DNA from: a virus
Virus record (IMG/VR): IMGVR_UViG_3300029258_004290
Span: 22,915 to 86,914 of that record
Length of the DNA: 64,000 nucleotides
Direction: 5' to 3' (one strand)
Shown: positions 49,426 to 64,000 of the stretch, one piece after another
Layout of the letters: each line of letters starts with the position of its first letter
Position numbering within the stretch: position 1 is the stretch's first letter
Program-made: the position numbers and the translations under genes
The notes under the pieces: generated by a model
What the model was told of the DNA's origin: nothing
The model's input: the letters and a program-made list of their open reading frames with translations, nothing else
Database searches by the model: none

Positions 49426-52335
49426 TTGAAGACAGTCAAGTTCCACCAGTACGAGCTCATCGACGAGGGCGACCACGACGACGCGGGGGCCTTCGTCATC
49501 GACCAGCAGATCCGGGACCTGGCCACCCAGCTGCTCGCCGATACCGACGCGCCCGTCATCTTCAAGGGGCTGACCGTCCAGGCCACCGGGCCCGCGAGCT
49601 CGAACGTCGAGATCACGCCGGGCCTGGGCTTCGAGACGGACGGCGAGCCGCTCTCGTACGACGGCACGCAGCCGAGCGCGTCGGTCATCACGGTCGCCCT
49701 GGGGGGCGCGACGCCCGGGAACATCTGCAGCATCCTGGTTCGGAGGAAGGCCGGAGGGTACGACACCGACTCCCAGAGCCGGACGTTCATCGGGGCCGGC
49801 GGCGCCACGTCCACGGCGTTCGTGAACAAGACGAACGTCGTGGGCATCGAGGCGACGATCCAGGAGGGCTCCGCGGTAGCGGCGCCCACGCCGATCACCG
49901 CGGGGTGGGTGAAGATCGCGGAGGTCGTCGCCGGCGCGGCAATCGTGGCAGGGGACATCGCGAACGCCGACGCGGCGTACTCCGGGGTCGACAACACCGG
50001 GTGGACGAACGACAAGCAGGCCACGATCCGCGCGACGACCTACAAGAAGCACAGGGACACCTTCGACCACCCGGACGGGTCGATCGACTACGTCCACCTG
50101 AGCACGGCCTTGCAGGCGCTCATCGACGAGAGCCAGTACGACGTCGTCATCCGGACCCAGGCAGACTGGGAGAGCTACTTCGGCGACGGGACCGAGACGA
50201 CGCCGTCCGGTGCGCAGACCGCCGGCGGGTGGGACTACACCGTCGCCGCCGGCGTGACGACCGTCGAGTTTCCCGCCAGCACCCGGGTGCTCATCCTGCC
50301 GTGCGCGAGCGGCGGCACGACGAACACCTTCAACGGGAACCGCGGGTACGTCATGAAGACCCGCTGCCAGATGCAGGACGGGTCGCAGCTGATCGGCCTG
50401 GGCGAGGCGCAGACGATCGTCACGTTCGACCGGACCACGACCGGGGAAACCGGTTTCGAGGTCGCTCATCCGTCCGCCAAGACCGTGGGGACCGCCTTCG
50501 GCAGCAAGACCGTCACGTGCGCGGACACGTCCGGCTTGACGGTCGGCGACTACGTCCGCATCAACGAAGGCTACCGGCATCCCGGCAGCCCGGCCTGGGA
50601 GTCCTCGATCCAGATCTATCGCCTCACGGCGATCACCCCCACCGACGTCACCGTCGACAAGCTGGTTCACCAGACGAATGGGGCCGCGTCGCTCTGGCGA
50701 CTCACCCCGGACGTCGCGCTGTCCGGCTTCTCGTGTGATGGCCAGGCCGGGATCGGCGGGAGCACCCACGGAAGCCAGGTGTACATCGACGACACCCTGT
50801 TCGACATGAAGGGCTGTGTCCGGGGGGTGTTCGACGCCCACGTCCTTAACGTGCACATTGGGGACGGGGGCGGGACGTCGGCCGACCGCCTCTACGACCT
50901 CGATTTCAGCGGTTGCTGCAGGGTTGCGAACATCCGGCAAAGCAAGGTCGAGCAGGGATTCATTGTGGGGCATGCGCATCTCAGCATCATCGAGAACATC
51001 GAGGGGTGCGAGGTTACGGCGGCGGCCGGCCTCGTGGTCGCCTACTGCCACGGCAGCCTGATCCGGGGCATTCACAACATCCAGCTGGTACGGCGTTGCG
51101 TCTCCAGGTGCGACGAGGCCACCATCGACGACATCCGCTACGTCGAGTGCTCGGACACGGCGTTCAACGGGGCTGCCGTCTATTGGTGCGACTGGGCCAA
51201 CATCGGCTCCGTGCGCGACGTCAAGGCGAGCGCCGGCGGTGTCGGCGGTGCGATCGCGGAGAGCGACAACATTCGCGTCCGCGAGGTGCTGAACTGCCGG
51301 ACCCATTACGGCGGTGCGCTCTACGACTGTGACAACGTCACCGTGGGGAGGATCCTGTACTGCTACGGGGGCCTCTATGGGGGGGCGATGCACAGCTGCA
51401 ATGGCGGAACGGTGGAGGCCATCGTCGCCTGCGACGGGAACACGGACGGCGGTGCACTCTACGACTGCGACGACCTGAAGGTCGGGTATATCGCGAACTG
51501 TGATGCCGGGAACTACGGTGCTGCGCTCTATGACTGCGATCGGTGCACTGTGGGAAGGATCCACAACTGCACCACCACGGTCGACGGCGGCGCGTTGTAC
51601 ACCTGCGACGACTGCCGCGTCGAGGAGATCTACGGCTGCACTGCCACGAACGGGGACGGCGGCGCGCTCAAGTCCTGCAACCGGTGCAGCGTCGGGCACA
51701 TCGCCGATTGCACGGCCGACACGAACGGCGGCGCCCTGGACAGTTGCAGCGATTGTCGCGTTGACAAGATCCGCGACTGCACCGCCACGAATGGGGACGG
51801 CGGCGCTCTGCAGGGGTGCGTCCGGTGCAGCGTTGGCCTGGTGCAGGATTGCGCGGCTCCTAACGGGAACGGCGGCTGCGTCGAGGGCGGATCCAACAAC
51901 ACCTTCGACGTCATCGAGACGTGTACGGCGGACAAGGGCGGCGCCGGCTACGGAACGGTCGACTCCTACTTCAACTTCATCCGGAGCTGCGCCAGCACCG
52001 ACGCGACGGGCGATTCCGGGGGCGCGCTCGAGGAGTGCGACAAGTGCACCGTCTACGGGGGCCTGTGGGGCTGCACGTCCGGCGGGGCGAACCCCGCCGC
52101 GACCGGGGCGGCGGTTCTCAATTGCGATCACGTCGTCCTACAGGGTATCTGGTACAGCAACGCTGACGGCGCGGGTAACAACTACAAGAACGTGAAAGGG
52201 TGCAGCGGAGGGGCCCGGGCGTTGGCCGCGAACGCGGCAGCTACCGGCGCCTCGCCTTCGACCCCCAACTATTGGATCCGCGAACCGACCGGCGTTGCCG
52301 CGGGGCAGGACGAAAAGACTGGCATGGCGTGGTAA
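49426..52335 (+). CDS. Tail fibre with beta-helix and cysteine ladder (969 aa)
   Basis: Probable receptor-binding fibre. TTG at 49426 follows AGGAGGAAGAGG. The N-terminal 200 residues are a baseplate-attachment-type domain (LGFETDGEPLSYDGTQPSAS). From about residue 310 it becomes a parallel beta-helix. Residues about 580-885 consist of about 13 coils of 22-27 residues with pattern GGALxxCxxCxVxxIxxCxA. The Cys recur at fixed rung positions. Third-position GC is lower there than in the baseplate genes. Ends ...DEKTGMAW. Confidence 0.75.
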   Translation: MKTVKFHQYELIDEGDHDDAGAFVIDQQIRDLATQLLADTDAPVIFKGLTVQATGPASSNVEITPGLGFETDGEPLSYDGTQPSASVITVALGGATPGNICSILVRRKAGGYDTDSQSRTFIGAGGATSTAFVNKTNVVGIEATIQEGSAVAAPTPITAGWVKIAEVVAGAAIVAGDIANADAAYSGVDNTGWTNDKQATIRATTYKKHRDTFDHPDGSIDYVHLSTALQALIDESQYDVVIRTQADWESYFGDGTETTPSGAQTAGGWDYTVAAGVTTVEFPASTRVLILPCASGGTTNTFNGNRGYVMKTRCQMQDGSQLIGLGEAQTIVTFDRTTTGETGFEVAHPSAKTVGTAFGSKTVTCADTSGLTVGDYVRINEGYRHPGSPAWESSIQIYRLTAITPTDVTVDKLVHQTNGAASLWRLTPDVALSGFSCDGQAGIGGSTHGSQVYIDDTLFDMKGCVRGVFDAHVLNVHIGDGGGTSADRLYDLDFSGCCRVANIRQSKVEQGFIVGHAHLSIIENIEGCEVTAAAGLVVAYCHGSLIRGIHNIQLVRRCVSRCDEATIDDIRYVECSDTAFNGAAVYWCDWANIGSVRDVKASAGGVGGAIAESDNIRVREVLNCRTHYGGALYDCDNVTVGRILYCYGGLYGGAMHSCNGGTVEAIVACDGNTDGGALYDCDDLKVGYIANCDAGNYGAALYDCDRCTVGRIHNCTTTVDGGALYTCDDCRVEEIYGCTATNGDGGALKSCNRCSVGHIADCTADTNGGALDSCSDCRVDKIRDCTATNGDGGALQGCVRCSVGLVQDCAAPNGNGGCVEGGSNNTFDVIETCTADKGGAGYGTVDSYFNFIRSCASTDATGDSGGALEECDKCTVYGGLWGCTSGGANPAATGAAVLNCDHVVLQGIWYSNADGAGNNYKNVKGCSGGARALAANAAATGASPSTPNYWIREPTGVAAGQDEKTGMAW
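51168..52080 (+). repeat. Tandem beta-helix rungs with a cysteine ladder
   Basis: About 13 in-frame units of 66-81 bases, each encoding one coil: GGALYDCDNVTVGRILYC, GGALYTCDDCRVEEIYGC, GGALDSCSDCRVDKIRDC and so on. Units have diverged at the DNA level but preserve GGA at the turn and Cys at two or three fixed positions, so the selection is on the protein. Confidence 0.8.
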
Positions 52336-52873: not shown

Positions 52874-53211
52874 CCTTTACGGACGGGGCGCTGATAGCCG
52901 GCCTGCTCACCATGGGCGTTGGCCTGGTGAAGGTGGTGGAGAAGTTGGTGGACCGGCGGGGGGAGAAGCGGAACGGCAAGCTCTCAGAGGAAGCGACTCA
53001 GGCGCTCCTGACCGGGCAGACGGAGCTCAAATCGGGGATGATGTCAATCAACCAGAAGGTGCAAGACCGCGACGGCGTCCCGCTGGCCTTCCATTTGCGG
53101 GAGCACACCGCGATCATGCGGGCGATGCTCGCCAGGATGGAGACCACGGCCGAGCAGCAACGGGAAACGACCGCGATCCAGAAGACCATTCTGGAGAAGC
53201 TCGACAAGTGA
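52870..53211 (+). CDS. Membrane-anchored coiled-coil lysis protein (113 aa)
   Basis: ATG at 52870 overlaps the previous TGA. Short hydrophobic N-terminus (ALIAGLLTMGVGLVKVVEKL) followed by a long charged helix (EHTAIMRAMLARMETTAEQQ, then ETTAIQKTILEKLDK). The topology resembles XhlA- or Rz-like accessory lysis proteins, either a second holin-type component or a spanin. Overlaps the endolysin GTG. Confidence 0.5.
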   Translation: MTFTDGALIAGLLTMGVGLVKVVEKLVDRRGEKRNGKLSEEATQALLTGQTELKSGMMSINQKVQDRDGVPLAFHLREHTAIMRAMLARMETTAEQQRETTAIQKTILEKLDK

Positions 53212-53843
53212 GCCGGCTGCTCGCCTGGCTGCACGACTTCCTCTGGGGTGAGGCGGAAGAAACGGAGGGCATGATGTCCGAGAAGAGGACGATGTTCCAG
53301 CGGTGCCTGACGACGGTGTTAGGTCACGAGGGCGGGTATTCCGACCACGCGGCCGACCGCGGCGGGAAGACCAGGTACGGCATCACGGAGGCGAGGGCCA
53401 GGAGCTACGGCTACACCGGCGACATGCGGGAGCTGCCGCTGCCCCTGGCGGAGGCCATCTACAAGCAGAACTACTGGGATGCCCTGCGGCTCGACGACTG
53501 CCCAGACGAGGACGTGGCGCTCGAGCTGCTCGACACCGCCGTCAACTGCGGCCCCGGCATCGCGGCGCGGTTCCTTCAGGAGGGACTCAACGTCCTCAAC
53601 AACCAGGGCAGGCGCTGGGACGACCTGAAGGAGGACGGCAAGCTCGGGACGAAGACGATGACCGCCGTCTCGGCCGCGGTGCGCAGGAGCGCGACAAAGT
53701 CGTGCCTCCTCAAGCTCCTCAACGCCAAGCAGGCGGTCCGGTACGAGGCAATCGCGCGCGGCGACCCGACGCAGGAGGCCTTCATGATCGGGTGGCTCGA
53801 CAAGCGCGTCAGCCTCCCGCCGGCAGGGGGCGAGCGGCGGTAG
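53208..53843 (+). CDS. Endolysin, GH108-type N-acetylmuramidase (211 aa)
   Basis: GTG at 53208 overlaps the previous TGA. The catalytic motif VLGHEGGYSDHAADRGGKTR then YGIT is at about residues 37-60 (E41 the probable catalytic acid), followed by LPLPLAEAIYKQNYWDAL and a C-terminal peptidoglycan-binding-like helical domain. An internal ATG at 53271 (residue 22) with GGAGG just upstream may be the true start, since the first 21 residues are not part of the fold. Cleaves the glycan backbone at the end of infection. Confidence 0.85.
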   Translation: MSRLLAWLHDFLWGEAEETEGMMSEKRTMFQRCLTTVLGHEGGYSDHAADRGGKTRYGITEARARSYGYTGDMRELPLPLAEAIYKQNYWDALRLDDCPDEDVALELLDTAVNCGPGIAARFLQEGLNVLNNQGRRWDDLKEDGKLGTKTMTAVSAAVRRSATKSCLLKLLNAKQAVRYEAIARGDPTQEAFMIGWLDKRVSLPPAGGERR

Positions 53844-53877
53844 CCCTCCTCAATTTCTCGACCCCCTACCGAGCGTG

Positions 53878-53910
53878 GGCCCGCCCTAGGCATTGAGCCG
53901 AAGGCGGGCC
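53878..53910 (+). terminator. Terminator-like hairpin after the endolysin
   Basis: GGCCCGCC (53878-53885) pairs with GGCGGGCC (53903-53910) across a 17-base loop, followed by TTCG rather than a long U-run. It separates the late operon from the promoter region at 53948 and is the best placed transcription-end candidate of the window. Confidence 0.5.
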
Positions 53911-53947
53911 TTCGCGCGCAACGTGGGCATGCTGCGCCCGCGGCGCG

Positions 53948-53953
53948 TATAAT
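53948..53953 (+). promoter_or_regulatory. Consensus -10 box (TATAAT) before the replication operon
   Basis: A perfect TATAAT in an otherwise GC-rich region between the endolysin and HTH genes. No convincing -35 lies 16-18 bases upstream, so an activator may be needed. Transcription would start near 53960, exactly at the 5' arm of the leader hairpin. Confidence 0.6.
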
Positions 53954-53958
53954 AGTAC

Positions 53959-54022
53959 GGAGAGCCGGCAAGCGGGGCCGGCGGGAGTTTCGTCGTTCCC
54001 TCAACCGGCCCCGCGGCTCTCC
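53959..54022 (+). promoter_or_regulatory. Long leader hairpin at the predicted transcript start
   Basis: GGAGAGCC (53959-53966) plus GCGGGGCCGG (53972-53981) pair with CCGGCCCCGC and GGCTCTCC (54005-54022), an 18-bp stem interrupted only by a 5-base bulge, with a 23-base loop. It begins where the transcript from the 53948 promoter would begin and ends 8 bases before the ATG at 54031, which has no ribosome-binding site. It may protect the 5' end, or control translation or termination. Confidence 0.6.
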
Positions 54023-54030
54023 TCCCTTCT

Positions 54031-54735
54031 ATGATTGTAAGGCTGGGAGAGGACATACTGGACCGCGCCAGGGAGGTGGGACCCACCTCCCTGGCGTCGT
54101 ACGTCATGGTGGAGCGCCACGCCGCGCGGGGCACGAGCATCAACGAGGTGGCCAAGGACCTCGGGGTCTCGCGCCCGACTGCGGCGAAGGCGCTCTCGTC
54201 GTTGGGGGAGCTCAAGCTCGTCAAGAGAGTCGACGGCCTGCTCTTCCCCAACACGCCGAGGGTAAGAAAATCTTACAGGCTATCTTACATCTTCTACCGC
54301 TACATACTCAAGAACGTGGTAGGTGAAGAGAGAAAGAGGCCCCTGACGAAGTGGACGCGGGCCAAGGTCGCGAACATCCAGGCGAACGGAGTTACCACGC
54401 TCGAGGAGCTCGAGAGGTACTGCCGGTGGTGGAACCGCGAGAAGGCGCCGCGCAAGAACTTCGGCTGGGGGCTGTTCTGCTGCGACAGCATGCTCCACGA
54501 GTACGCGACACGGCCAGCCGCGAAGAAGCGTCCGGCGAAACAACCCGGGAGGAGGGATGGAGACGCGGCAACCTCCCACGACCAACGCAGCCGGGAGCTC
54601 CTCCGCGAGCTGGCGCGCGACGCGATCAGGCGGAAGAAGGCCGGCGAGAGGCTCGGCGCCGGGGACCGCGAGGTGCTCCGGCAGGCCAGGGAGGCCGGCA
54701 TAATCAGGAGACGCAAGAAGGAGGGAACGGCATGA
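54031..54735 (+). CDS. HTH replication/regulatory protein (234 aa)
   Basis: First gene of the replication operon. ATG at 54031 has no ribosome-binding site. Residues about 15-75 form a winged HTH (LASYVMVERHAARGTSINEV, then AKDLGVSRPTAAKALSSLGE), as in phage replication-initiation or DnaD-like N-terminal domains, then a basic region with two Cys (LFCCDSM) and a Lys/Arg-rich tail. A perfect 29-base palindrome lies inside its first codons (54067-54095), perhaps an autoregulatory operator. A shorter version from ATG 54106 is possible but would cut the HTH domain. Confidence 0.65.
   Translation: MIVRLGEDILDRAREVGPTSLASYVMVERHAARGTSINEVAKDLGVSRPTAAKALSSLGELKLVKRVDGLLFPNTPRVRKSYRLSYIFYRYILKNVVGEERKRPLTKWTRAKVANIQANGVTTLEELERYCRWWNREKAPRKNFGWGLFCCDSMLHEYATRPAAKKRPAKQPGRRDGDAATSHDQRSRELLRELARDAIRRKKAGERLGAGDREVLRQAREAGIIRRRKKEGTA
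54067..54095 (+). promoter_or_regulatory. Perfect 29-base palindrome inside the HTH gene
   Basis: GCCAGGGAGGTGGG - A - CCCACCTCCCTGGC: 14-bp arms with no mismatch around one central base, about 107 bases downstream of the predicted transcription start. It may be the binding site of the HTH protein it lies in, or an RNA hairpin that limits translation. Confidence 0.65.
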
Positions 54736-55040
54736 GCTACATCGCCGGCGAGGAGTTCTACGACAGGCTCGACGAGGTCAAGGACCTGCTGGCCCGGGCA
54801 AGGAAGAGCGGCAACCGCGCGTTCGCGGAGGCCGCCGCGGCCCTGGACTACACCGTGGCCACGCTCGTCCGGGCCAACACCGCAACCCGGCGATCCTTGC
54901 AGCTGCTCCGGCAGACGACGGGGGTGCTGCGGAAGGCCATGCCGGCCGGCGGCCCGCACAACACGGAGGTGGTCACCAAGGCGATCAAGCGGATCGTCGC
55001 GGTATCCGCGCGCCGGGATCTGAATAGGGCAGCATCGTGA
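54732..55040 (+). CDS. Helical unknown protein (102 aa)
   Basis: ATG at 54732 (GGAGGGAACGGC upstream) overlaps the previous TGA. Entirely helical, with repeated Leu/Ala/Arg spacing, perhaps a DNA- or helicase-associated small protein given the operon. No motif. Confidence 0.5.
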   Translation: MSYIAGEEFYDRLDEVKDLLARARKSGNRAFAEAAAALDYTVATLVRANTATRRSLQLLRQTTGVLRKAMPAGGPHNTEVVTKAIKRIVAVSARRDLNRAAS

Positions 55041-55246
55041 GCATCGAGAGGGTGATTACTTATTGTGTGCGGTGTGAGGGCCCGTGCCGCAAGACGCTCG
55101 GGCACCGCGGCGAGGCGTCAGACGTGGCGCACCTGTTCCTGACCAGGGAAGACGCCGCGGACGCGGCCGGGCGGGTGCAGTGGCTCGACGACGACAACCG
55201 GCACTTGTGCCCGGCTTGCCGCAGGACGGTGGAGGAGACGCGATGA
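55037..55246 (+). CDS. Small Cys-rich protein (69 aa)
   Basis: GTG at 55037 overlaps the previous TGA. Residues hold CVRCEGPC near the N-terminus and CPAC near the C-terminus, suggesting a zinc ribbon with an inserted helix. Overlaps the DnaC-like gene. Function unknown. Confidence 0.55.
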   Translation: MSIERVITYCVRCEGPCRKTLGHRGEASDVAHLFLTREDAADAAGRVQWLDDDNRHLCPACRRTVEETR

Positions 55247-56043
55247 AGTACAGCGAAGAGGAGTTCGCCCGCCTGAAGGAGATGCGCGACCGCCTCGTCT
55301 CAGCGTGCAAGTTTTGCGGGGGTTCGGGGGTGGACAGGCGGAACGAGGAGGACTGCCGGTGCATGGTGGCCTTCGACTGGCTGCGGGAGCTGACGCACGC
55401 CAATATCCCGCGGGAATACTGGGCACTCTCGCTTGAGGAGATTGAGACGGATGCCGCGGCCAAGCGGCTGGTCGCGACCTACATTGAGAACATGCGCAAT
55501 GCTCTGGACCAGGGGCTGGGCATGGTGCTGCTCGGGCCGCTCGGCGTGGGGAAGACGAGCCTCATGTGCGCCGTCGGAAAGGAGGCGTTGCTCCGCGGTG
55601 TGCCGGCCTATTACACCACGACGCAGGCGCTGCTCGACTCCCTGAAGCCCGGGGCGGACGAGGAGCACGGGGCCGCGGCCAGGGCGAAGGCCGCGCGGGT
55701 CGTTCTGCTCGACGAGCTCGACAAGGTCTACCTGAAGGCCGGGAGCGACTGGGCGCGCGGCAGGATCGAGGAGCTGCTCCGCGGCGGGATACCGCACCAC
55801 ACGGCCTTCCTCATCGGGACCAATCTCGAAGAGGAGGGGATTGCGGAGTCGTTCGGCGCGTCGGTCGCGTCGTTGGTCCGCGGCCACCTCAAGATGGTGA
55901 ACCTCTCCGGCGCCGACAGGCGCGACGGCATGCAGCGAGACTGGCTGGCCAGGCTGAAGACCGGGGGGTCTCTCGCCAGGCTGGCGAGGAACAAGGTCAT
56001 AGCCGCGGACGCCCGGCGGTTCCAGCTCTGGGGGAAACGGTGA
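55243..56043 (+). CDS. DnaC/IstB-like helicase loader ATPase (266 aa)
   Basis: ATG at 55243 overlaps the previous TGA. An N-terminal zinc knuckle (C22, C25, C38, C40) precedes the AAA+ domain: Walker A GPLGVGKT at 98-105, Walker B VVLLDELDK (D157, E158), then a sensor strand AFLIGTNLEEEG and a C-terminal basic region. Loads the replicative helicase encoded directly downstream onto DNA. Confidence 0.8.
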   Translation: MKYSEEEFARLKEMRDRLVSACKFCGGSGVDRRNEEDCRCMVAFDWLRELTHANIPREYWALSLEEIETDAAAKRLVATYIENMRNALDQGLGMVLLGPLGVGKTSLMCAVGKEALLRGVPAYYTTTQALLDSLKPGADEEHGAAARAKAARVVLLDELDKVYLKAGSDWARGRIEELLRGGIPHHTAFLIGTNLEEEGIAESFGASVASLVRGHLKMVNLSGADRRDGMQRDWLARLKTGGSLARLARNKVIAADARRFQLWGKR

Positions 56044-57416
56044 AGGACATCCTGGAGATCGTCGACGCGAAGTACCGGGACCTGAAGGCGGAGATCGCAC
56101 TGCTCGCCTACGTCATGAAGCGGCGGCTGCACCCGCAGGCGGAGGAGGGGCTGTTCAGCTCGCCGCCGCACCGCTTCCTCTTCAAGGTGGCCCGCGCCCA
56201 CAACGGGCCGGTGCCGAAGGCTGTCGCGCTGGACGAGATCGAGCGCCGGGTCCCGTCGATCCGCGCGGACGCGTACCGCGCCGCTGCGGACCGCGCGTAC
56301 GGAAGGAGGGTGAAGACCCTGACGGCCAAGGGCGTCAGGTCGCTGCTCGCTAGGCTGAAGCGCATGGCCGCGAGTCGGACGATCCTCGTCGACGCGGACA
56401 GGATTGTCGACAGCGTCCTGGACGGGAAGCTCGACGCCGCGCGCCAGCTAGGGCGGGGGATCGCGCTGGCCGGCAAGAGGCCCGGGTCGCAGTACGCGGG
56501 TGACTACCTGGCGGATTTCGAGGAAAGGCGCGCGATCGTGCGGGCCAGGCGGAAGAACCCCGACCGCGTCGGCATCCCGACGGGGATTCGGAAGTTCGAC
56601 GCGGCGGCCGGCGGCCTTATGCCCGGGGAGTTCGCCATCATCCTGGGGCAGACGAACATCGGGAAAAGCATGATGCTCGAGAACCTGGCGCTCAACGCCT
56701 GGCTCCCCGAGCTGAACGCGGCGGGGCGAGCTCACAACGTCCTCTACGTCTCCATCGAGATGACGAAGCACGAGCTCGAGTTCCGGGCGGACGCCCGGCT
56801 GGCCAGGGTGGAGCACATGAAGTTCCGGCTCGGCCGCGGCTGGACCAAGGAGGACGCACGGAGGTGGAAGTCGAGGATCGAGGACCTGCGCAACACGTCG
56901 GAGACGTTCCTCCACTTTGAGTGCGTGCCGCGGCACTGCACGCCGTCCATGATCGAGGCCGTCGCCGAGCGCGTGCAGGACGAGTATGGGAGGAAGCTCG
57001 ATCTCCTTATTGTGGACTACCTCAACATCCTGGGCGCGGACGGCGAGGAGAGGTCCGGCTCGAAGCAGTGGTACTTCCAGGCGGACATCGCCTGGCAGCT
57101 GAAGGCCCTGGCCACCGACTTCAACGACGGCGAGGGGTTGGCGCTGTGGACGGCGAACCAGCTCACGGACGAGGGCGCGCGGAAGGAGGTGCTCGACTTC
57201 ACGGCCACGAAGTACGGGCGTGCGGCGGCGGAGGTCGCACCGGTCGTGGTCGGCCTGGTCCGGACGCAGGACGACGCGCTGAAGAACCAGATGCAGCTGC
57301 AGGTGGTAAAGCACAGGGGGGCGCGGCGCGTGGACCCGATCATCCTCCGGCCGAACCTCGACTTCTGCACGATGGACGACGAGCGCCGCGGGCTCAAGAC
57401 GCTGGAGGCACTGTGA
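56040..57416 (+). CDS. DnaB-like replicative helicase (458 aa)
   Basis: GTG at 56040 overlaps the previous TGA. Helical N-terminal domain (about 1-150), linker, and RecA-like C-terminal domain with PTGIRKFDAAAGGLMPGEFA, Walker A GQTNIGKS (203-210), Walker B LLIVDYLNIL (D326), and the C-terminal Gln/Asn motif. Hexameric fork helicase. Neighbours are its loader and the primase. Confidence 0.8.
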   Translation: MKDILEIVDAKYRDLKAEIALLAYVMKRRLHPQAEEGLFSSPPHRFLFKVARAHNGPVPKAVALDEIERRVPSIRADAYRAAADRAYGRRVKTLTAKGVRSLLARLKRMAASRTILVDADRIVDSVLDGKLDAARQLGRGIALAGKRPGSQYAGDYLADFEERRAIVRARRKNPDRVGIPTGIRKFDAAAGGLMPGEFAIILGQTNIGKSMMLENLALNAWLPELNAAGRAHNVLYVSIEMTKHELEFRADARLARVEHMKFRLGRGWTKEDARRWKSRIEDLRNTSETFLHFECVPRHCTPSMIEAVAERVQDEYGRKLDLLIVDYLNILGADGEERSGSKQWYFQADIAWQLKALATDFNDGEGLALWTANQLTDEGARKEVLDFTATKYGRAAAEVAPVVVGLVRTQDDALKNQMQLQVVKHRGARRVDPIILRPNLDFCTMDDERRGLKTLEAL

Positions 57417-58315
57417 GGCTCGAGGCGTCGCAGCTGCGCGCCCTGGGCCTCGAGGGGGAGGCGCGCGGCGGGGAATTCGTCGCGCTCTGCCCGTTCCACG
57501 ACGACACGCAGCCGTCGCTCGGCGTCCGGCTGCGGGACGGGGTGTGGAACTGCCTCGGATGCGGGAGGCACGGCAGCTGGGCGACGCTGCGCAGGGAGCT
57601 AGGCGCGCCGCCGGACCCGCTTGAGGACGAGCTGGCGCCAGAACCCGATCCGGAGCCGGTCAGCTGGCAGCGGCGACTGAGGGAGAAGTCCAGGGCGGGT
57701 GGGCTGACGATCCGCGTGCTGCAGGAGAACACGCTCGAGCAGTTCCCGTGCGTGGAATGGGAGACCGTGGTGTGGCTGGCGGAGCGCCGCCGCATCTCGC
57801 CGGAGGTGGCCCTGACGTACGACGTCAGGACGGGGAAGGGCCGGCTCGCCGGGTACGCGGTCATCCCGATCCGCGACCGCAGGGGCCGGCTCATCTCGTT
57901 CACGGCCCGCCACATGTCCAGCAACGACCCGCGGGAAAAGGTGAGGAAGGCGACGAACACCGACGCGCGGAAGGTCCTCTTCGGGGAGGACGTGCTCGAG
58001 CGCTTCTGGTCCAAGACGAAGGAGGTAGCCTTGGTGGAGGGAGAGATCGACGCCATGTCCGGGATGCAGTGCGGCTTCCCGACGCTCGCCCTGATGGGGT
58101 GGGTGCCGACGCAGTCGCAGCTGCGGAAGATCCGCTCGCGCTTCCTGCGGGTTACGCTCTGCCTGGACTCGACCGTCGCGGCGGAGGACGTGGACCGCGT
58201 CGCCAGGATGCTGCGGCCGTACGTCCAGGTGCGGACGGCGTGCACCAGAGAGAAGGACCTGAACGCCGAGCTGTGCGAGCACGGCGTGACGGGGGTGCGG
58301 CATGCACTCGCCTGA
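57413..58315 (+). CDS. DnaG-like primase (300 aa)
   Basis: GTG at 57413 overlaps the previous TGA. CHC2-type zinc-binding residues C26, H29, C47, C50 (LCPFHDD, NCLGCG), an intervening RNA polymerase-like segment (RLISFTARHMSSNDPREKVR), and a Toprim motif with E209 (VALVEGEIDAMS; D213). Compact for a DnaG protein. Makes RNA primers for lagging-strand synthesis with the DnaB-like helicase. Confidence 0.8.
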   Translation: MRLEASQLRALGLEGEARGGEFVALCPFHDDTQPSLGVRLRDGVWNCLGCGRHGSWATLRRELGAPPDPLEDELAPEPDPEPVSWQRRLREKSRAGGLTIRVLQENTLEQFPCVEWETVVWLAERRRISPEVALTYDVRTGKGRLAGYAVIPIRDRRGRLISFTARHMSSNDPREKVRKATNTDARKVLFGEDVLERFWSKTKEVALVEGEIDAMSGMQCGFPTLALMGWVPTQSQLRKIRSRFLRVTLCLDSTVAAEDVDRVARMLRPYVQVRTACTREKDLNAELCEHGVTGVRHALA

Positions 58316-59834
58316 CTTCCCCAACCCGATGCGGGGCTTCCCGTACCCGGAGCCGCGCGACATCCAGCGCAAGGCGATCATGGCGACAATGAGGCAGCTC
58401 CTCAAGGGGAAGCGGGTCGTCGTGCTCGAGCTGCCGACCGGAGTGGGGAAGAGCGCGGTCGGCCTGACGCTCGCGCTGGCGGAGGGGCCGTGCTTTTACA
58501 TCACGGTGCAGAAGATGCTGCAGGACCAGTACGAGCGGGAGTTCCCCGACCGCTTCGCCGTGCTCAAGGGGAGGAACGCGTACGAGTGCGCGGCCGAGCG
58601 CGGGTCGAACTGCGCGGAGGGGCCGTGCACCGTCGACCCGGCGCTGAGGAAGCAGCACGCCGACCGCTGCCCGTACACGCAGGCGGCGGAGAGAGCGCTC
58701 AACCACGCCAGGCCGCTCTTCAACATGGACTCCTTCTACTACCAGTCGGAGCACGGCTGGTTCCGCGGCGCGCGGCGCCCCCTCCTGGTCGTCGACGAGG
58801 GGCACCTCATCGAGGACAAGTTCATGTCGTTCATCGAGGTCCGCGTCACGGCCGACGACTTCGGGGAGAAGCCGCCGGAGGAGGGGACGCCGCTCGCGGA
58901 CTGCGTGCCGTACCTTGAGGCGTGCAGGGTCGAGGCGGAGGCGGAGGTCGAGGCGAAGAAGGACTCGCCCGGCCTGACGAAGGCGGAGGCGAAGCGCCTG
59001 GCGCACCTACACTCGGTCGCGGCCAGGATCGGGGAGTTGCTCGACGACCTGCCGAAGAACCCGCAGAACTGGGTGCACCAGTGGGAGACGACCAGGCGCG
59101 GCCGCCAGGTCCTGGTCGTCAAGCCGGTCGTCGTCGGGAGGTGGGCGAGGGATCGGCTGTTCGACAAGGCGGAGCGCGCGGTCGTCATGAGCGCGACGAT
59201 CGTCTCCATCGAGCAGTGGTGCCAGGCCGTCGGGCTCGAGCGGTCGGAGGTCGCGTACCTCTGCGCCGGCTCGCCGTTCCCGAAGGAGAACCGGCGGATA
59301 GTCAAGCGGTACGCCGGGAGCATGTCGTTCCGCAACTACGAGAGGACCAGGCCGAAGATGCTGCGAGAGCTGCGCGCGATCCTGGCGGAGCACGAGGGGG
59401 AGCGCGGCATCGTGCACACCCACTCCTACAAGGTGGAGCGGGCGATCCGCGACGGCATCCGCGACCCGCGGCTGACGTTCAAGAACGGCGACGTCGCCGC
59501 GATGCTGCGCGAGCACGAGGCGAAGAGGGGCAGCGTCATCGTCGCGCCCGGCCTCGCGGAGGGGCTCGACCTCAAGGACGACCTCTCCAGGTTCCAGGTG
59601 GTGTGCAAGGTGCCGTACCCCTCGCTCGGCGACGCGCAGATGCAGCGGAGGTTCGAGCTGAGCAGGTCCTACTACGCCTACCGCACGATGCTCACGCTCG
59701 TGCAGGAGTACGGGCGGAGCGTGAGGCACGAGGGCGACCGCGCGGTGACGTACGTCGTCGACTCCGACCTCGACCGCTTCCTCCGGCAGAACGCCCGCAT
59801 CACCCCCTCGTGGTTCGCGGAGGCGCTGGAGTAG
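58302..59834 (+). CDS. DinG/XPD-like DNA helicase (510 aa)
   Basis: ATG at 58302 overlaps the primase end. Superfamily 2 helicase: Walker A PTGVGKS (45-51), four cysteines C96, C104, C109, C123 that match the iron-sulfur domain position of DinG/XPD proteins, DEGH box at 165-168, and C-terminal motifs including VVMSATI and APGLAEGLDLKDD (motif V/VI region). Probably unwinds DNA or R-loops during replication or recombination. Last gene before the regulatory region at 59835. Confidence 0.8.
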   Translation: MHSPDFPNPMRGFPYPEPRDIQRKAIMATMRQLLKGKRVVVLELPTGVGKSAVGLTLALAEGPCFYITVQKMLQDQYEREFPDRFAVLKGRNAYECAAERGSNCAEGPCTVDPALRKQHADRCPYTQAAERALNHARPLFNMDSFYYQSEHGWFRGARRPLLVVDEGHLIEDKFMSFIEVRVTADDFGEKPPEEGTPLADCVPYLEACRVEAEAEVEAKKDSPGLTKAEAKRLAHLHSVAARIGELLDDLPKNPQNWVHQWETTRRGRQVLVVKPVVVGRWARDRLFDKAERAVVMSATIVSIEQWCQAVGLERSEVAYLCAGSPFPKENRRIVKRYAGSMSFRNYERTRPKMLRELRAILAEHEGERGIVHTHSYKVERAIRDGIRDPRLTFKNGDVAAMLREHEAKRGSVIVAPGLAEGLDLKDDLSRFQVVCKVPYPSLGDAQMQRRFELSRSYYAYRTMLTLVQEYGRSVRHEGDRAVTYVVDSDLDRFLRQNARITPSWFAEALE

Positions 59835-59886
59835 GCCTCCGGGGCCGCGGGCGGGCCGAGCCCTCGCGGATCGGCCCGAAGGCCTA
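59832..59886 (+). terminator. Nested terminator-like hairpin after the helicase gene
   Basis: Inner stem GGGCCGA/TCGGCCC (59853-59859 with 59871-59877), outer stem TAGGCCT/AGGCCTA (59832-59838 with 59880-59886). No U-tract. Starts at the stop codon of the helicase gene and ends before the operator-promoter region. Confidence 0.45.
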
Positions 59887-59892
59887 GGTTGG

Positions 59893-59951
59893 GCTTACAT
59901 TATTCTAGAAAAGTGCTGTACGCGGCGGAGTTCCTACTTTATAATGTAAGC
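59893..59951 (+). promoter_or_regulatory. 11-bp inverted-repeat operator with -10 box
   Basis: GCTTACATTAT (59893-59903) and ATAATGTAAGC (59941-59951) are perfect inverted repeats, 37 bases apart; the right arm overlaps a consensus -10 box (TATAAT at 59940-59945). No good -35 is visible. Binding of a repressor at both arms could loop the DNA and block the promoter. A/T-rich compared with everything around. Confidence 0.7.
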
Positions 59952-59983
59952 AGATCAAAGCAAGGGGCGAGCAGCCCCGGAAA

Positions 59984-59998
59984 GAGGGAACGACGATG
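59984..59998 (+). promoter_or_regulatory. GAGGGAACGACG-ATG leader, copy 1
   Basis: The 12-base leader directly in front of ATG 59996. Four further perfect copies are at 60077, 60703, 61904 and 62333. It contains a Shine-Dalgarno-like GAGGGA, but conservation extends over all bases to the start codon. Confidence 0.75.
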
Positions 59999-60685
59999 GG
60001 AGCCGAGACGAAGAAGAGCGGAGCGAAGGGAACGAACGAAGAGGCCGCCATGGGAGCGGCCTCCAACATTTCCGAGGAGGGAACGACGATGGACACGAAC
60101 AACAACAACATGGTGGTGATCGACGAGCAGGGGACGACGGTGCCGGCCGACAGCGAGATGGCGGACGACGCGATCGAGGCCAGCGGAGAGGAAGAGGAGG
60201 CCGTTGACACGAGCATCCCGCTGCGCGTCCGCGTGCGGGCCGCCTTCAGCGCGGAGGAGCAGAGCGAGATCCTCAAGGGCAACGCCGCCCGCCTGCGGCT
60301 GCCCGCCCCCTACAAGGCGATGCAGTGCCCCAACGGCATGATGATCGAGAACAAGAAGACCGGACGCCGCGTGGTCGTCGGCAACTACGCCTTCGGAGAG
60401 GTCAGCCGCGCGCTGAACGCTCTCCTTTACGGCGGGAGCGGCAATGGCGACTACATCGACGCGGGGCAGTGGGCGGAGATCCGGCAGCACCTCTGCGGCG
60501 AGACGCCGCTCACCGACGAGCAGGTCAACGAGTTGTGGGCGATGGGAGACGGCTACGGGAAGCTGACCGCCGAGGAGGTCGCGGGCATGCTCTACGACTT
60601 CACGCACATCAAGGCCTCGAGCGTCGAGGCGAAGCGCGCCATCGCGGACGCGCTGAAGAACATGCTCGAAGGGGCGGCGGCGTAA
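59996..60685 (+). CDS. Unknown early protein, two possible starts (229 aa)
   Basis: ATG at 59996 and the in-frame ATG at 60089 are both preceded by the exact 12-base leader, so two forms 31 residues apart may be made. The N-terminal part is disordered (Gly, Thr, Asn), with GTTMDTNNNNMVVIDEQGTT. From about residue 75 a folded domain begins (IPLRVRVRAAFSAEEQSEIL). No family recognised. Confidence 0.6.
   Translation: MGAETKKSGAKGTNEEAAMGAASNISEEGTTMDTNNNNMVVIDEQGTTVPADSEMADDAIEASGEEEEAVDTSIPLRVRVRAAFSAEEQSEILKGNAARLRLPAPYKAMQCPNGMMIENKKTGRRVVVGNYAFGEVSRALNALLYGGSGNGDYIDAGQWAEIRQHLCGETPLTDEQVNELWAMGDGYGKLTAEEVAGMLYDFTHIKASSVEAKRAIADALKNMLEGAAA
60077..60091 (+). promoter_or_regulatory. GAGGGAACGACG-ATG leader, copy 2 (internal)
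   Basis: Second copy, located in frame inside the previous gene in front of ATG 60089. Confidence 0.75.
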
Positions 60686-60702
60686 GCCGCCCCCCGGGCA
60701 CG

Positions 60703-60717
60703 GAGGGAACGACGATG
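60703..60717 (+). promoter_or_regulatory. GAGGGAACGACG-ATG leader, copy 3
   Basis: Precedes ATG 60715; also preceded by a short GC-rich spacer (CGCCCCCCGGGCACG). Confidence 0.75.
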
Positions 60718-61623
60718 AACACTGAACTGAAGAACAACACCAACACGAACAAAGCCCCGGACCCCGAGGTCGCCAAGGCGATCGCGGCGGCGGAGGAGAA
60801 GCAGCGCGAGGCGGCCGAGCTGAGGCGGAAGGCCGAGACCCTCGAGAAGAAGGGCGTGTTCCAGCAGGAGGCGGCGCAGCGCCTCGCCGACGCGCAGAAG
60901 GAGTTCGGCGCCGAGACCGCGCTGCGCGTCGAGGAGGACGAGGACGGCCACGTCCACTGCGCCGTCTACGTCGGCGTCACCCGCTACGGCTACTCGCACC
61001 GCGGATGGCTCGACGCCCTGAATACGGCGCGGGGCTGGGTCGCCAGCCGCGAGACGCGCCGCCGCATCGCGCAGGGGTACAAGGACATCGCGTCGGCGTT
61101 CACCGGCGCGGGGTGCGTGGTCGAGCGCGGGGCCGAGAAGCTGGACTACGGCATCGTCTGCCGGAAGGTCGAGAAGGTCAACGGCACCCGGGTGCGCATC
61201 CACATCGAGGAGCAGTATCGCGGCGGCCACTACAGCTACCGCAGCACCGGCCGGCTGGTCGCCGTCGTGGAGCCGGCCAGCTGGCGGCAGGGCGACCGGG
61301 TGCGCCGCTACCCCGAGCTGAAGGCAGGGGGCTTCAACTATAAGAAGATCGTGGAGACGGTCCTCGAGGAGATCCGCATCGCGAAGGCCTGCGCGAAGAG
61401 GCGCTCTGAGGAGGAGGGGGCGCGCATGCGGTCGTCCGCCCTCGCCACCCACCTCAACCTGCAGCTCTTCGGCAAGGAGCGGCCCTACGGCGTCGGGACC
61501 TTCCGCGGCTGCATGTCCGGTGACAGGGTTGCGATGGACCTCCCGTCGACCGTGACGAAGGAGCAGGCGCGCGCGCTGCTGGCGACACTCCGTGAGCTCG
61601 GCCTCGCGAAGGAGGGGAAGTAA
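60715..61623 (+). CDS. Unknown early protein (302 aa)
   Basis: ATG at 60715 directly after the leader. Asn/Thr-rich start, then a helical coiled coil (about 20-65), then an alpha/beta domain (about 70-290) with strands VHCAVYVGVTRYGYSHRGWL, RVRIHIEEQYRGGHYSYRST and a late beta hairpin. No enzyme motif is visible. Confidence 0.6.
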   Translation: MNTELKNNTNTNKAPDPEVAKAIAAAEEKQREAAELRRKAETLEKKGVFQQEAAQRLADAQKEFGAETALRVEEDEDGHVHCAVYVGVTRYGYSHRGWLDALNTARGWVASRETRRRIAQGYKDIASAFTGAGCVVERGAEKLDYGIVCRKVEKVNGTRVRIHIEEQYRGGHYSYRSTGRLVAVVEPASWRQGDRVRRYPELKAGGFNYKKIVETVLEEIRIAKACAKRRSEEEGARMRSSALATHLNLQLFGKERPYGVGTFRGCMSGDRVAMDLPSTVTKEQARALLATLRELGLAKEGK

Positions 61624-61624
61624 G

Positions 61625-61885
61625 ATGCTGGGCACCGACACGATCCACGGTGACAAGGTCATAGCCGCGGCTCACCTCCCGTACGAGGAGGGCCGCGGTA
61701 TCCGCGACCGCAGGCTCGTGCTGGTAGACCGGGGCGCGGAGCGCGGGGAGGTCGGCTGCCGGTGGGTGGTCGCCCTCGAGAACTTCGGCGACGGGGAGTG
61801 GTACTCCAGCGGCTACCACAATACGAAGCAGAACGCGGTCGACGAGTTCGTCGCCCGCATGCGCGAGTACCTCGGCGTCGGCTGA
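61625..61885 (+). CDS. Small unknown early protein (86 aa)
   Basis: ATG at 61625 is 1 base after the previous stop, and unlike its neighbours has no 12-base leader, so translation may depend on coupling. Alpha/beta domain (RRLVLVDRGAERGEVGCRWV, then VALENFGDGEWYSSGYHN). Family unknown. Confidence 0.55.
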   Translation: MLGTDTIHGDKVIAAAHLPYEEGRGIRDRRLVLVDRGAERGEVGCRWVVALENFGDGEWYSSGYHNTKQNAVDEFVARMREYLGVG

Positions 61886-61903
61886 GGCGAATATGAAGGA
61901 AGA

Positions 61904-61918
61904 GAGGGAACGACGATG
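61904..61918 (+). promoter_or_regulatory. GAGGGAACGACG-ATG leader, copy 4
   Basis: Fourth perfect copy, in front of ATG 61916. Confidence 0.75.
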
Positions 61919-62320
61919 GCGAACGGAACACTGAGGAAGGCGGACGTGCGGGAGATCCTTGCGGCGACGTACCCGGGCTACCGGGGGCGGAAGTTCGGTG
62001 CGGAGCTCCTCCGAGACGGGAGGTACCTCGTGCAGGATCACTGGTCCGGGGGCACGAGGTACTACGTGAAGGCCGTGACGCGCGACCCGGAGACCGGCCG
62101 GCTGGTCGTGCGGGGCGCCGCGGCGTACAATCCCATCACGGTGGACCACAGCCGCCTCGAGATCGAGGTGCCGGACGACGTGCTCCTCGTCGAGCACGTG
62201 TACTTCTGCGGGAGGGACCTAGGGATCCGCTTCCGCATGACCGCGAGGTCCACGTGGACCCGCGAGCTCCCGTTCTCGCGGGTGCTCGCGCTGCCGCAGC
62301 CGCTCGAGGCGCTGCGATAA
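61916..62320 (+). CDS. Unknown early protein (134 aa)
   Basis: ATG at 61916 after the leader. Beta-rich with DVREILAATYPGYRGRKFGA, YYVKAVTRDPETGRLVVRGA and LLVEHVYFCGRDLGIRFRMT; one cysteine. Possibly a small nucleic-acid-binding or host-takeover protein; not recognised. Confidence 0.55.
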   Translation: MANGTLRKADVREILAATYPGYRGRKFGAELLRDGRYLVQDHWSGGTRYYVKAVTRDPETGRLVVRGAAAYNPITVDHSRLEIEVPDDVLLVEHVYFCGRDLGIRFRMTARSTWTRELPFSRVLALPQPLEALR

Positions 62321-62332
62321 AGAGAGGGAAGA

Positions 62333-62347
62333 GAGGGAACGACGATG
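62333..62347 (+). promoter_or_regulatory. GAGGGAACGACG-ATG leader, copy 5
   Basis: Fifth perfect copy, before ATG 62345, preceded by a partial duplication (AGAGAGGGAAGAGAGGGAA). Confidence 0.75.
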
Positions 62348-62962
62348 ACCAGAATGACGAAGACCATGCCCAGGAAGGGCAGGCGGGTCAAGGCGGCCGG
62401 CCTCCTCACGGAGGACGACGTGCGGGCCATGACGAAGGGGCAGCTGCGCAAGGTCGCGCTCGGGGCGCTCGAGGCGCACAGGTCGCTGACGGCGCGGCAC
62501 TACGCCGCGAGGCTGAAGGCCAAGGACTCGCCGGCCGACCGTCGCGAGGCGGACGTCGCCGCGGACGCGGCGTTCTGCGTCCGCCTCGCGCTCGCCCAGG
62601 CGATCGGGATGAAGAAGCTTGACGAGCTCGAAGGGCGCGCGGCCACGGGCAAGCCGACGCGCAGCAAGATAGAGAGGACGCCGCTCGGGGGCTACCTCGT
62701 CCGCGTCGGGAAGCTCGCGGTCGAGCGCTGGTGGAACCGGCAGGAGCGGTCGTGGGTCGTGATGCTGCTCGACGAGAACGGGTACCAGTTCGGGACGTCG
62801 ACGTACCTCTGCGGCAAGGAGGCCGCGGTGGGCCTGCAGGAGGGCTGGGTCCAGATCCTCGAGGCGGGGAAGCTTCCGGCCGAGGCGTTCCCCCCGCACG
62901 TGTGGAACCCCAAGATCGACGAGCGCGACCTCGTCGCGTCGGCAGAGGAGGCCCGCAAGTGA
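62345..62962 (+). CDS. Unknown early protein (205 aa)
   Basis: ATG at 62345. Basic N-terminus, a helical segment (about 25-100), then a beta/alpha part with LGGYLVRVGKLAVERWWNRQ and SWVVMLLDENGYQFGTSTYL. No catalytic signature. Overlaps the next GTG. Confidence 0.55.
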   Translation: MTRMTKTMPRKGRRVKAAGLLTEDDVRAMTKGQLRKVALGALEAHRSLTARHYAARLKAKDSPADRREADVAADAAFCVRLALAQAIGMKKLDELEGRAATGKPTRSKIERTPLGGYLVRVGKLAVERWWNRQERSWVVMLLDENGYQFGTSTYLCGKEAAVGLQEGWVQILEAGKLPAEAFPPHVWNPKIDERDLVASAEEARK

Positions 62963-63423
62963 CGACGAAGAAGGACCTGCGGCAGGAGTCGTCGGATACG
63001 AAGGGCGCGCTGCGGGAGTTGCGCCGCCGGAAGATGGTGATGCTCCACGACCTGCGGGAGCTGAACCGCGCGATCCGCTACCTCTCCAAGGAGCAGGAGC
63101 GGGTCGACAAGGCGCTGCGGAAGCCGCGGCGCAAGGCGCGGCCGATGAAGGAGCCGTGCACGTATCACGCCGAGACGCGCGTCGGCAAAAGTAAGTTCCG
63201 TCGGCTGCATGGCCGCGTCGACGCGGCGGGCTTTCATGCGCCGCGCTTCGCGGTGCTGCGCCGCCTCAACCGCCGGCTGCGCAACCCGGGCCAGTGGGAC
63301 GGGGTCAAGCTTGAGGTTATGACCGCGACGACCGCGCGGGAGTTCACCATGCAGGTGGTGGACGGCCGCGTGCAGCTCCTGTCGGCCTACGTCGCGCCCG
63401 ACCTGGCGAGGGAGACAGTCTGA
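62959..63423 (+). CDS. Basic unknown early protein (154 aa)
   Basis: GTG at 62959 overlaps the previous TGA. Long charged N-terminal helix (LRELRRRKMVMLHDLRELNR), basic middle (KALRKPRRKARPMKEPC), then a beta-rich C-terminal part. Not recognised. Confidence 0.5.
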   Translation: MTTKKDLRQESSDTKGALRELRRRKMVMLHDLRELNRAIRYLSKEQERVDKALRKPRRKARPMKEPCTYHAETRVGKSKFRRLHGRVDAAGFHAPRFAVLRRLNRRLRNPGQWDGVKLEVMTATTAREFTMQVVDGRVQLLSAYVAPDLARETV

Positions 63424-63932
63424 TGGCCTTCGGCGGCATGGCCAAGGAGAAGGTGATGGCCCGGGCGCGCAAGCGCTGGGGGGCCAAGGCGCACGCCGCG
63501 CCCGGCCACCTGTACGGGAAGAAGGAGTGCTGGGTCGGCTACAGAGCAGAGGGCGGGCGCTTCGAGGTGAAGGGGCGCGGTCCGACGTGGAAGGAGGCGT
63601 TCCGCATGGCCGATCACTTCGAGAACCCGGACCCGGAGCAGCTCCGTCTGGGGAAGGAGATCAATGGGAAGTGGCTGAAGGCGCACGTCGGGAAGACCGG
63701 CGTCCAGGTGAAGGACCGGCAGGGCGAGGGCACTGTGCGGCAGCTCGAGCGCCGTGCGAAGATCGACCTGGCCAAGGAGATGATCCAGGGCGGGAAGGGC
63801 AGGCACGAGACGATCGAGGCGATCATGGCGAAGTTCGAGGGCGGCACGTACAACTCCATCTCCTCCTCGATCATACAGGCGGCGCGCAAGGAGCTCGGCC
63901 TGAGCGGTGCCGGGAAGGTAAAGAGGAAATGA
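63423..63932 (+). CDS. Unknown protein with a C-terminal helical DNA-binding-like region (169 aa)
   Basis: ATG at 63423 overlaps the TGA of the previous gene. N-terminal part alpha/beta (YGKKECWVGYRAEGGRFEVK); C-terminal segment HETIEAIMAKFEGGTYNSIS, then SSIIQAARKELGLSG, resembles small HTH-type helical pairs. Tentative. Its TGA overlaps the next ATG. Confidence 0.5.
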   Translation: MAFGGMAKEKVMARARKRWGAKAHAAPGHLYGKKECWVGYRAEGGRFEVKGRGPTWKEAFRMADHFENPDPEQLRLGKEINGKWLKAHVGKTGVQVKDRQGEGTVRQLERRAKIDLAKEMIQGGKGRHETIEAIMAKFEGGTYNSISSSIIQAARKELGLSGAGKVKRK

Positions 63933-64000
63933 GCGCGGAGGGCTGGGACAAGAAGAGGGTCGTCGCCCTGCTCGACAGCAACCCGCGGGCGGTCGAGCGG
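63929..64000 (+). CDS. N-terminus of a protein cut by the window edge
   Basis: ATG at 63929 overlaps the previous TGA. The 24 visible residues (SAEGWDKKRVVALLDSNPRA) are a charged helix. No function can be given. Confidence 0.5.
   Translation, partial: MSAEGWDKKRVVALLDSNPRAVER

What the first reader, a model, noticed from the sequence alone, without database searches (positions are those of the whole stretch)
59984..62347. Five identical 12-base leaders fused to start codons
GAGGGAACGACG directly before ATG occurs at 59984, 60077, 60703, 61904 and 62333 in front of unrelated coding sequences. A ribosome-binding site needs only about six bases, so full identity up to the ATG suggests coordinated translational control, an RNA-binding protein site, or a recombination cassette boundary that lets genes be swapped behind one leader.
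Basis: seen in the sequence. Interest (0 to 1): 0.7.

Follow-up and report, generated by a model that had tools for sequence, protein, structure and literature searches.

The report
Repeated gene-start leader with antisense hairpin
A bacterial virus puts one identical 12-base sequence directly in front of at least five of its gene starts and carries, once, a strong RNA hairpin whose loop is the exact complement of that sequence, which suggests that one small RNA can switch off translation of the whole set at once.

Summary
The window is the last 64 kb of an 86.9-kb phage record whose 144-base terminal overlap indicates a circular genome. GAGGGAACGACG-ATG occurs five times, as reported. A sixth copy (one mismatch) lies in the same gene run just beyond the window's end. 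Allowing one mismatch, the record has six sense copies, all abutting ATG, and exactly one antisense copy.

The antisense copy is the key. At window 53991-54002 it forms the loop region of a very stable hairpin (53959-54022, z = -4.3) that starts about 6 nt after a promoter-like TATAAT. The RNA would expose UCGUCGUUCCCUC, which pairs with the whole leader plus the A of ATG.

Best reading: a trans-acting antisense RNA, or the 5' UTR of the replication operon, masks the Shine-Dalgarno and spacer of a regulon. This would explain why bases outside the ribosome-binding site are conserved. Expression and repression are inferred, and no relative was found to test covariation.

The closest known elements are the start-associated sequences of Cluster K mycobacteriophages. 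Their unexplained single reverse copy, in K1-type phages, also sits in a hairpin loop. The K2, K3 and K6-type phages and the EF phage examined lack it, so generality is open.

The parts
59984..59995 (+). leader copy 1, GAGGGAACGACG abutting ATG 59996
60077..60088 (+). leader copy 2, abutting ATG 60089, in frame inside ORF 59996-60685 (internal alternative start)
60703..60714 (+). leader copy 3, before ORF 60715-61623
61904..61915 (+). leader copy 4, before ORF 61916-62320
62333..62344 (+). leader copy 5, before ORF 62345-62962
54721..54731 (+). divergent leader variant GAGGGAACGGC before ATG 54732 (possible weak target)
59996..60685 (+). ORF behind copies 1 and 2 (229 aa, no family)
60715..61623 (+). 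ORF behind copy 3 (302 aa, no family)
61916..62320 (+). ORF behind copy 4 (134 aa, no family)
62345..62962 (+). ORF behind copy 5 (205 aa, no convincing family)
53959..54022 (+). stable RNA hairpin, 18 lower-stem pairs (8 + 10) with an internal bulge; candidate antisense RNA or 5' UTR element
   Evidence: MFE -44.7 kcal/mol for 53959-54036, z -4.3, 0 of 200 shuffles as stable
53990..54002 (+). anti-leader UCGUCGUUCCCUC in the loop and weak apical stem, complementary to GAGGGAACGACGA of the leaders
53924..53953 (+). promoter-like TGGGCA-N18-TATAAT whose start site would be the 5' end of the hairpin
59940..59945 (+). TATAAT upstream of the leader gene run
59893..59951 (.). perfect 11-bp inverted repeat GCTTACATTAT / ATAATGTAAGC (arms 59893-59903 and 59941-59951) overlapping that TATAAT; operator-like
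54031..54735 (+). helix-turn-helix-like ORF directly downstream of the hairpin, first gene of the DnaC/DnaB/primase/helicase run
   Evidence: HTH read from the sequence only, no PHROGs match

Best explanation
The 12-base leader is the target site of a phage-encoded antisense RNA. A transcript from the promoter-like site at 53924-53953 begins with a hairpin (53959-54022). Its loop and weak apical stem present UCGUCGUUCCCUC, the exact complement of GAGGGAACGACG plus the A of the ATG. By kissing and then invading the 5-bp apical stem, it forms a 13-bp duplex covering the Shine-Dalgarno, spacer and first base of the start codon. This would block 30S binding on every mRNA carrying the leader, and so turn down in trans a run of small genes of unknown function (59996 to record 656) when the replication operon (54031-59834) is transcribed. 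Shown: the leaders, their identity, the single antisense copy, the predicted hairpin and its position after a promoter-like site. Inferred: that the RNA is made, that it pairs in the cell, and that the effect is repression.
For: With up to one mismatch the record holds six sense copies, all before ATG, and one antisense copy. In 300 simulated genomes (order-3 Markov) only four antisense 12-mers arose, about 0.013 per genome. Only 5.6% of the record is noncoding, yet the antisense copy falls there, inside one of the most stable hairpins (0.06% of 64-nt windows as stable; z -4.3). UUUCGUCG is unpaired at 0.87-1.0 probability. The hairpin starts about 6 nt after TATAAT. Among 109 predicted genes, only one other start has an exact antisense 12-mer of its -12..-1, and it is low-complexity. 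Net pairing energy with opening costs is -11.7 to -17.7 kcal/mol for the six leaders, against a mean of -0.2 (sd 5.0) for other starts; the best other is -11.3 (record 20894), then -8.5 (the control list also held copy 5's gene at its second ATG, set aside here). Three leader starts lie in the least structured 2% of starts. Parallel: in Cluster K1-type mycobacteriophages the one reverse-orientation SAS (PMC3203893) is the invariant loop CCTCCTATCC of an intergenic hairpin with a pairing-conserved stem.
Against: No RNA-seq and no relative, so leader/loop covariation is untested. Only 8 nt of loop are free, plus UC beyond the apical stem; opening costs about 6.9 kcal/mol. The hairpin may be just the 5' UTR of ORF 54031, since no clear terminator follows it. 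The search was partly post hoc. In Cluster K the loop is not anti-SAS in Pixie, Keshu, Amgine, Unicorn, Shandong1, LeMond or SirPhilip although their SAS is unchanged; TM4 and the EF phage AnnaSerena show no anti-SAS loop.
Confidence: 0.6

Rival explanations
1. The leader is only an optimal ribosome-binding site plus spacer, kept identical by selection for strong early translation or by recent copying; the antisense loop is a coincidence.
For: It contains GAGG at good spacing, and most leader starts are unusually unstructured. Copies 4 and 5 share about 9 further bases upstream, as recent copying would leave. No other gene run of the record shares one leader.
Against: Eight non-Shine-Dalgarno bases are invariant in five copies while other starts of this phage vary freely. 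The exact antisense 12-mer is expected about 0.013 times per genome before its location in a noncoding hairpin loop is counted.
Confidence: 0.2
2. The leader is the binding site of a phage translational repressor protein, like T4 RegA, and the hairpin is unrelated or is the repressor's own control element.
For: RegA operators overlap or abut the AUG in about 30 T4 mRNAs (PMC3014915). The position here is the same.
Against: RegA sites lack clear sequence conservation (PMC3014915), whereas this site is exact. The hairpin carries the complement of the site, not the site itself, so it would not bind the same protein as single-stranded RNA. No RegA-like protein was seen among the proteins scanned, though not all proteins were scanned.
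Confidence: 0.12
3. The 12-mer is a DNA site (for example for the HTH-like protein 54031, or at an origin) that happens to lie at gene starts and, reversed, near the replication operon.
For: Sites occur in both orientations, and the reverse one is next to the replication operon promoter.
Against: All six sense copies end exactly at the ATG, which a DNA site has no reason to do. The site is not palindromic, and the reverse copy is the loop of a hairpin that starts at the presumed transcript end.
Confidence: 0.05
4. The leader is a recombination boundary that lets genes be swapped behind a fixed start.
For: Unrelated proteins follow the same 12 bases.
Against: No shared flanks beyond the 12 bases in most copies. 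One copy is internal to an ORF. No relatives with swapped genes are known.
Confidence: 0.03

Closest known systems
Start-Associated Sequences (SAS) of Cluster K mycobacteriophages (GGGATAGGAGCCC; PMC3203893) and of Cluster EF Microbacterium phages (GGGAAAGGACCCC; PMC7302621)
   Same: Short asymmetric repeat at the ribosome-binding position of many unrelated nonstructural genes, conserved beyond the Shine-Dalgarno bases, almost only on the coding strand and mostly before ATG. K1-type phages also have one reverse copy, which here proved to lie in a hairpin loop.
   Different: Different sequence; six copies rather than 11-19 per K genome; fixed zero spacing to ATG rather than 3-7 bp; no extended SAS inverted repeats; mostly short or no intergenic gaps. 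EF phage AnnaSerena, TM4 (K2) and Pixie (K3) show no antisense loop.
P1/P7 c4 antisense RNA (reviewed in PMC12197685)
   Same: Phage RNA, with complementary sequences probably in loops, pairing around a ribosome-binding site to block translation.
   Different: c4 controls the ant mRNA; here one loop matches at least five to six starts, in trans.
RNAIII and Rsa RNAs of Staphylococcus aureus (UCCC loops; PMC3861533)
   Same: C-rich hairpin loops that pair with Shine-Dalgarno regions of several mRNAs.
   Different: A bacterial chromosomal regulator with short UCCC seeds on diverse targets; here a 13-nt exact match to identical leaders in a phage.
T4 RegA translational repression (PMC3014915)
   Same: Coordinated control of many early phage mRNAs at the start codon.
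   Different: Acts by a protein on loosely similar AU-rich sites, not by an antisense RNA on identical sites.

Membership tests
Cluster K Start-Associated Sequences | 13-bp consensus GGGATAGGAGCCC (up to two mismatches) | tested here: not met
   The leader here is GAGGGAACGACG.
Cluster K Start-Associated Sequences | Repeat placed at the ribosome-binding position of several unrelated genes, one orientation, ATG starts | tested here: met
   Six copies abutting ATG; proteins unrelated.
Cluster K Start-Associated Sequences | About half carry 17-bp imperfect inverted repeats just upstream (ESAS) | tested here: not met
   No inverted repeat shared upstream of the copies.
Trans-acting antisense RNA (c4 / RNAIII kind) | Hairpin loop complementary to the ribosome-binding sites of targets | tested here: met
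   13-nt exact complement at 53990-54002.
Trans-acting antisense RNA (c4 / RNAIII kind) | RNA is expressed with defined ends | not testable with these tools
   Only a promoter-like site; no clear terminator.
Trans-acting antisense RNA (c4 / RNAIII kind) | Pairing maintained by covariation in relatives | tested here: inconclusive
   No relative found. In Cluster K1-type phages SAS and loop are both fixed; in other subclusters the loop differs.
Rfam RNA families | Match at the gathering score | tested here: not met
   Only sub-threshold matches in 53000-64000 and in the Angelica hairpin region.

The most novel reading that the evidence does not exclude
Repeated start-associated leaders and a single hairpin RNA with the complementary loop form a recurrent kind of phage regulon control: one antisense RNA silences a set of genes that all carry its target as their ribosome-binding leader. 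It arose independently in this orphan myovirus and in Cluster K1-type mycobacteriophages, where it would give the start-associated sequences, of unknown function since 2011, a partner.
Probability: 0.3. Interest if true: 0.82.

Novelty: new variant of a known kind. Interest (0 to 1): 0.62.

Why it matters
Identical start-site leaders in phages have been described since 2011 without a known partner or function. A complementary hairpin loop is a specific, cheap-to-test partner: swap three loop bases and see whether all leader genes escape control, then restore pairing in the leader. It also gives a sequence rule (repeated leader plus one antisense loop) for finding phage-encoded regulatory RNAs.

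Tried and rejected
Relatives were sought with the copy-1 ORF, helicase, major capsid, terminase, DnaB-like and HTH-like proteins in IMG/VR, the capsid protein in genome contigs, and tblastn or blastn in named phages: only proteins of about 23-42% identity, or nothing. The exact 15-mer occurs once each in 73 IMG/VR contigs, which looks like chance in so large a collection, so the multi-copy element seems specific to this phage. Recombination-cassette and DNA-site readings were considered and set low. Anti-SAS loops were not found in TM4, Pixie or AnnaSerena. Rfam gave nothing. RNA sequencing of a Cluster K phage (Dedrick et al. 2019, cited in PMC12699233) was not read, so whether the K hairpin has been seen as a transcript is unknown to me. 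Four early family searches failed on a coordinate error.

Full report
WHAT IS THERE. The window is G000:C1:22915-86914, the last 64 kb of a virus record of 86,914 bases. The two ends share 144 identical bases and genes run across the junction, so the record is best read as a circular 86,770-bp genome. It encodes terminase, portal, major head protein, tail sheath, baseplate protein and endolysin, i.e. a myovirus. All predicted genes lie on the + strand. GAGGGAACGACG-ATG occurs at the five stated places and is the commonest 15-mer of the record.

COPIES. Copy 2 (60077) is in frame inside the ORF that begins at copy 1, so it offers an internal start, and copies 1-5 serve four ORFs. A sixth copy with one change (GAGGGAACGACA-ATG) stands at record 372, in the same gene run across the contig junction; the following gene (record 653-1258) has a sigma-70 region 2 match. 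The proteins behind the leaders match no PHROGs or Pfam family convincingly and are unrelated to each other. With up to one mismatch the 12-mer has six sense copies, all before ATG, one antisense copy, and no others. The bases just outside (-13 upstream, +4 onward) vary.

NOT CHANCE. The expected number of the 15-mer on the + strand is about 0.0006. Other records rarely have more than three identical 12-mers abutting a start codon; one IMG/VR locus has four.

THE ANTISENSE COPY. CGTCGTTCCCTC lies at 53991-54002 between the endolysin gene and ORF 54031. The sequence is TGGGCA-N18-TATAAT (53924-53953), then a hairpin that begins about 6 bases later: GGAGAGCC GGCAA GCGGGGCCGG / CCGGCCCCGC GGCTCTCC enclosing CGGGAGUUUCGUCGUUCCCUCAA. 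Folding gives -44.7 kcal/mol, z = -4.3, none of 200 shuffles as stable; only 0.06% of 64-nt windows of the record are as stable. In the fold UUUCGUCG is an open 8-base loop; UUCCC pairs weakly with GGGAG, and UC is open again. The complement to the leaders is 13 bases, UCGUCGUUCCCUC, i.e. the whole leader plus the A of ATG.

HOW SURPRISING. A random genome of this composition holds such an antisense 12-mer with probability about 0.013 (4 in 300 simulations). That is before counting that it falls in the 5.6% noncoding part, in a top-ranked hairpin, right after one of only four places on the + strand with a TATAAT-like hexamer. Of 109 predicted gene starts only one other has an exact antisense of its -12..-1, a low-complexity one. 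Calculated pairing including opening costs is -17.7 to -11.7 kcal/mol for the six leaders, against a mean of -0.2 for other starts (the control list also contained copy 5's gene at its second ATG, which I set aside). The caution is that I looked for meaning in the antisense copy after finding it.

MECHANISM. Pairing would cover the Shine-Dalgarno, the spacer and the first base of the start codon, so repression of translation is the likely effect. Leader starts are mostly unstructured (three of six in the least structured 2% of all starts), hence open to ribosome and antisense RNA alike. The leader gene run has its own TATAAT at 59940 overlapping a perfect 11-bp inverted repeat. The hairpin lies at the 5' end of what would be the replication operon transcript (HTH-like protein, DnaC-like, DnaB-like, primase, helicase). 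A simple inference is that onset of replication-operon transcription turns down the leader genes. Whether the hairpin RNA is released as a small RNA is unknown; no clear terminator follows, though a second perfect 14-bp hairpin lies at 54067-54095.

COMPARISON WITH KNOWN ELEMENTS. The closest are the Start-Associated Sequences of Cluster K mycobacteriophages, 11-19 copies of GGGATAGGAGCCC at gene starts, conserved beyond what the ribosome needs, function unknown (PMC3203893), and a similar motif in Cluster EF Microbacterium phages (PMC7302621). A 2025 survey of 188 Cluster K phages still calls the function unverified and does not mention a hairpin or small RNA (PMC12699233). The 2011 paper notes a single reverse-orientation site in Anaya, Adephagia, Angelica and CrimD, not obviously tied to a gene start. 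I looked at three of them: in each it is the loop CCUCCUAUCC of a long hairpin in a noncoding or weakly annotated gap near the right genome end. The 256-base region around it has matches in 172 mycobacteriophage records, and the hairpin itself in 84 at 90% identity or more. In seven diverse sequences the loop is invariant while the stem keeps 92.7% of pairs, with two pairs showing changes on both sides; sliding the partner drops pairing to 37-49%. The shuffle control for covariation is only modest. In Pixie, Keshu, Amgine, Unicorn, Shandong1, LeMond and SirPhilip the loop is different although their SAS is unchanged, and TM4 and AnnaSerena show no such loop. So the parallel is real in K1-type phages but not universal. 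Phage antisense RNAs acting at ribosome-binding sites are known (c4 of P1/P7, PMC12197685), as are bacterial RNAs with C-rich loops that pair with Shine-Dalgarno regions (PMC3861533) and a phage protein doing the same job (T4 RegA, PMC3014915).

LIMITS. Gene calls come from a simple script. Promoters are consensus matches only. Nothing here shows expression.

VERDICT. The most economical explanation is a leader regulon controlled by an antisense hairpin RNA, about 60% likely. It works like known antisense regulators, is not a member of the Cluster K SAS family by sequence, and would be a new variant: one phage RNA against a built-in, repeated ribosome-binding leader.

Noticed in passing
L085 about 39850-39902, L086 about 46614-46666, L087 about 46662-46714 and relatives: Conserved intergenic hairpin with anti-SAS loop in K1-type mycobacteriophages, with matches to its region in 172 records; mostly unannotated.
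   Followed up: partly
54067-54095: Perfect 14-bp hairpin (GCCAGGGAGGTGGG / CCCACCTCCCTGGC) inside the first codons of ORF 54031; could be an attenuator.
   Followed up: no
59893-59951: Perfect 11-bp inverted repeat around the TATAAT that precedes the leader gene run; operator-like.
   Followed up: no
53924-53953 and L079 1196-1225: Two promoter-like sites share TGGGCA, an 18-base spacer and TATAAT/TATACT; possible phage promoter family.
   Followed up: partly
L079 653-1258: Gene with sigma-70 region 2 match (Pfam E 6.6e-8) directly after the sixth leader gene.
   Followed up: no
L080 about 1880-1909 (record 20894): Start with GGAGGGAATGATG, which could pair with the same loop through G-U wobble; possible further target.
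   Followed up: partly
59984-60142: The first leader ORF has near-copies of the leader in frame (60077 exact, 60128 CAGGGGACGACG-GTG), encoding repeated (E/Q)GTT(M/V); possible nested starts.
   Followed up: no
49426-52335: 969-residue ORF with many repeated motifs such as GGALYDCD; possibly a beta-helical tail spike.
   Followed up: no
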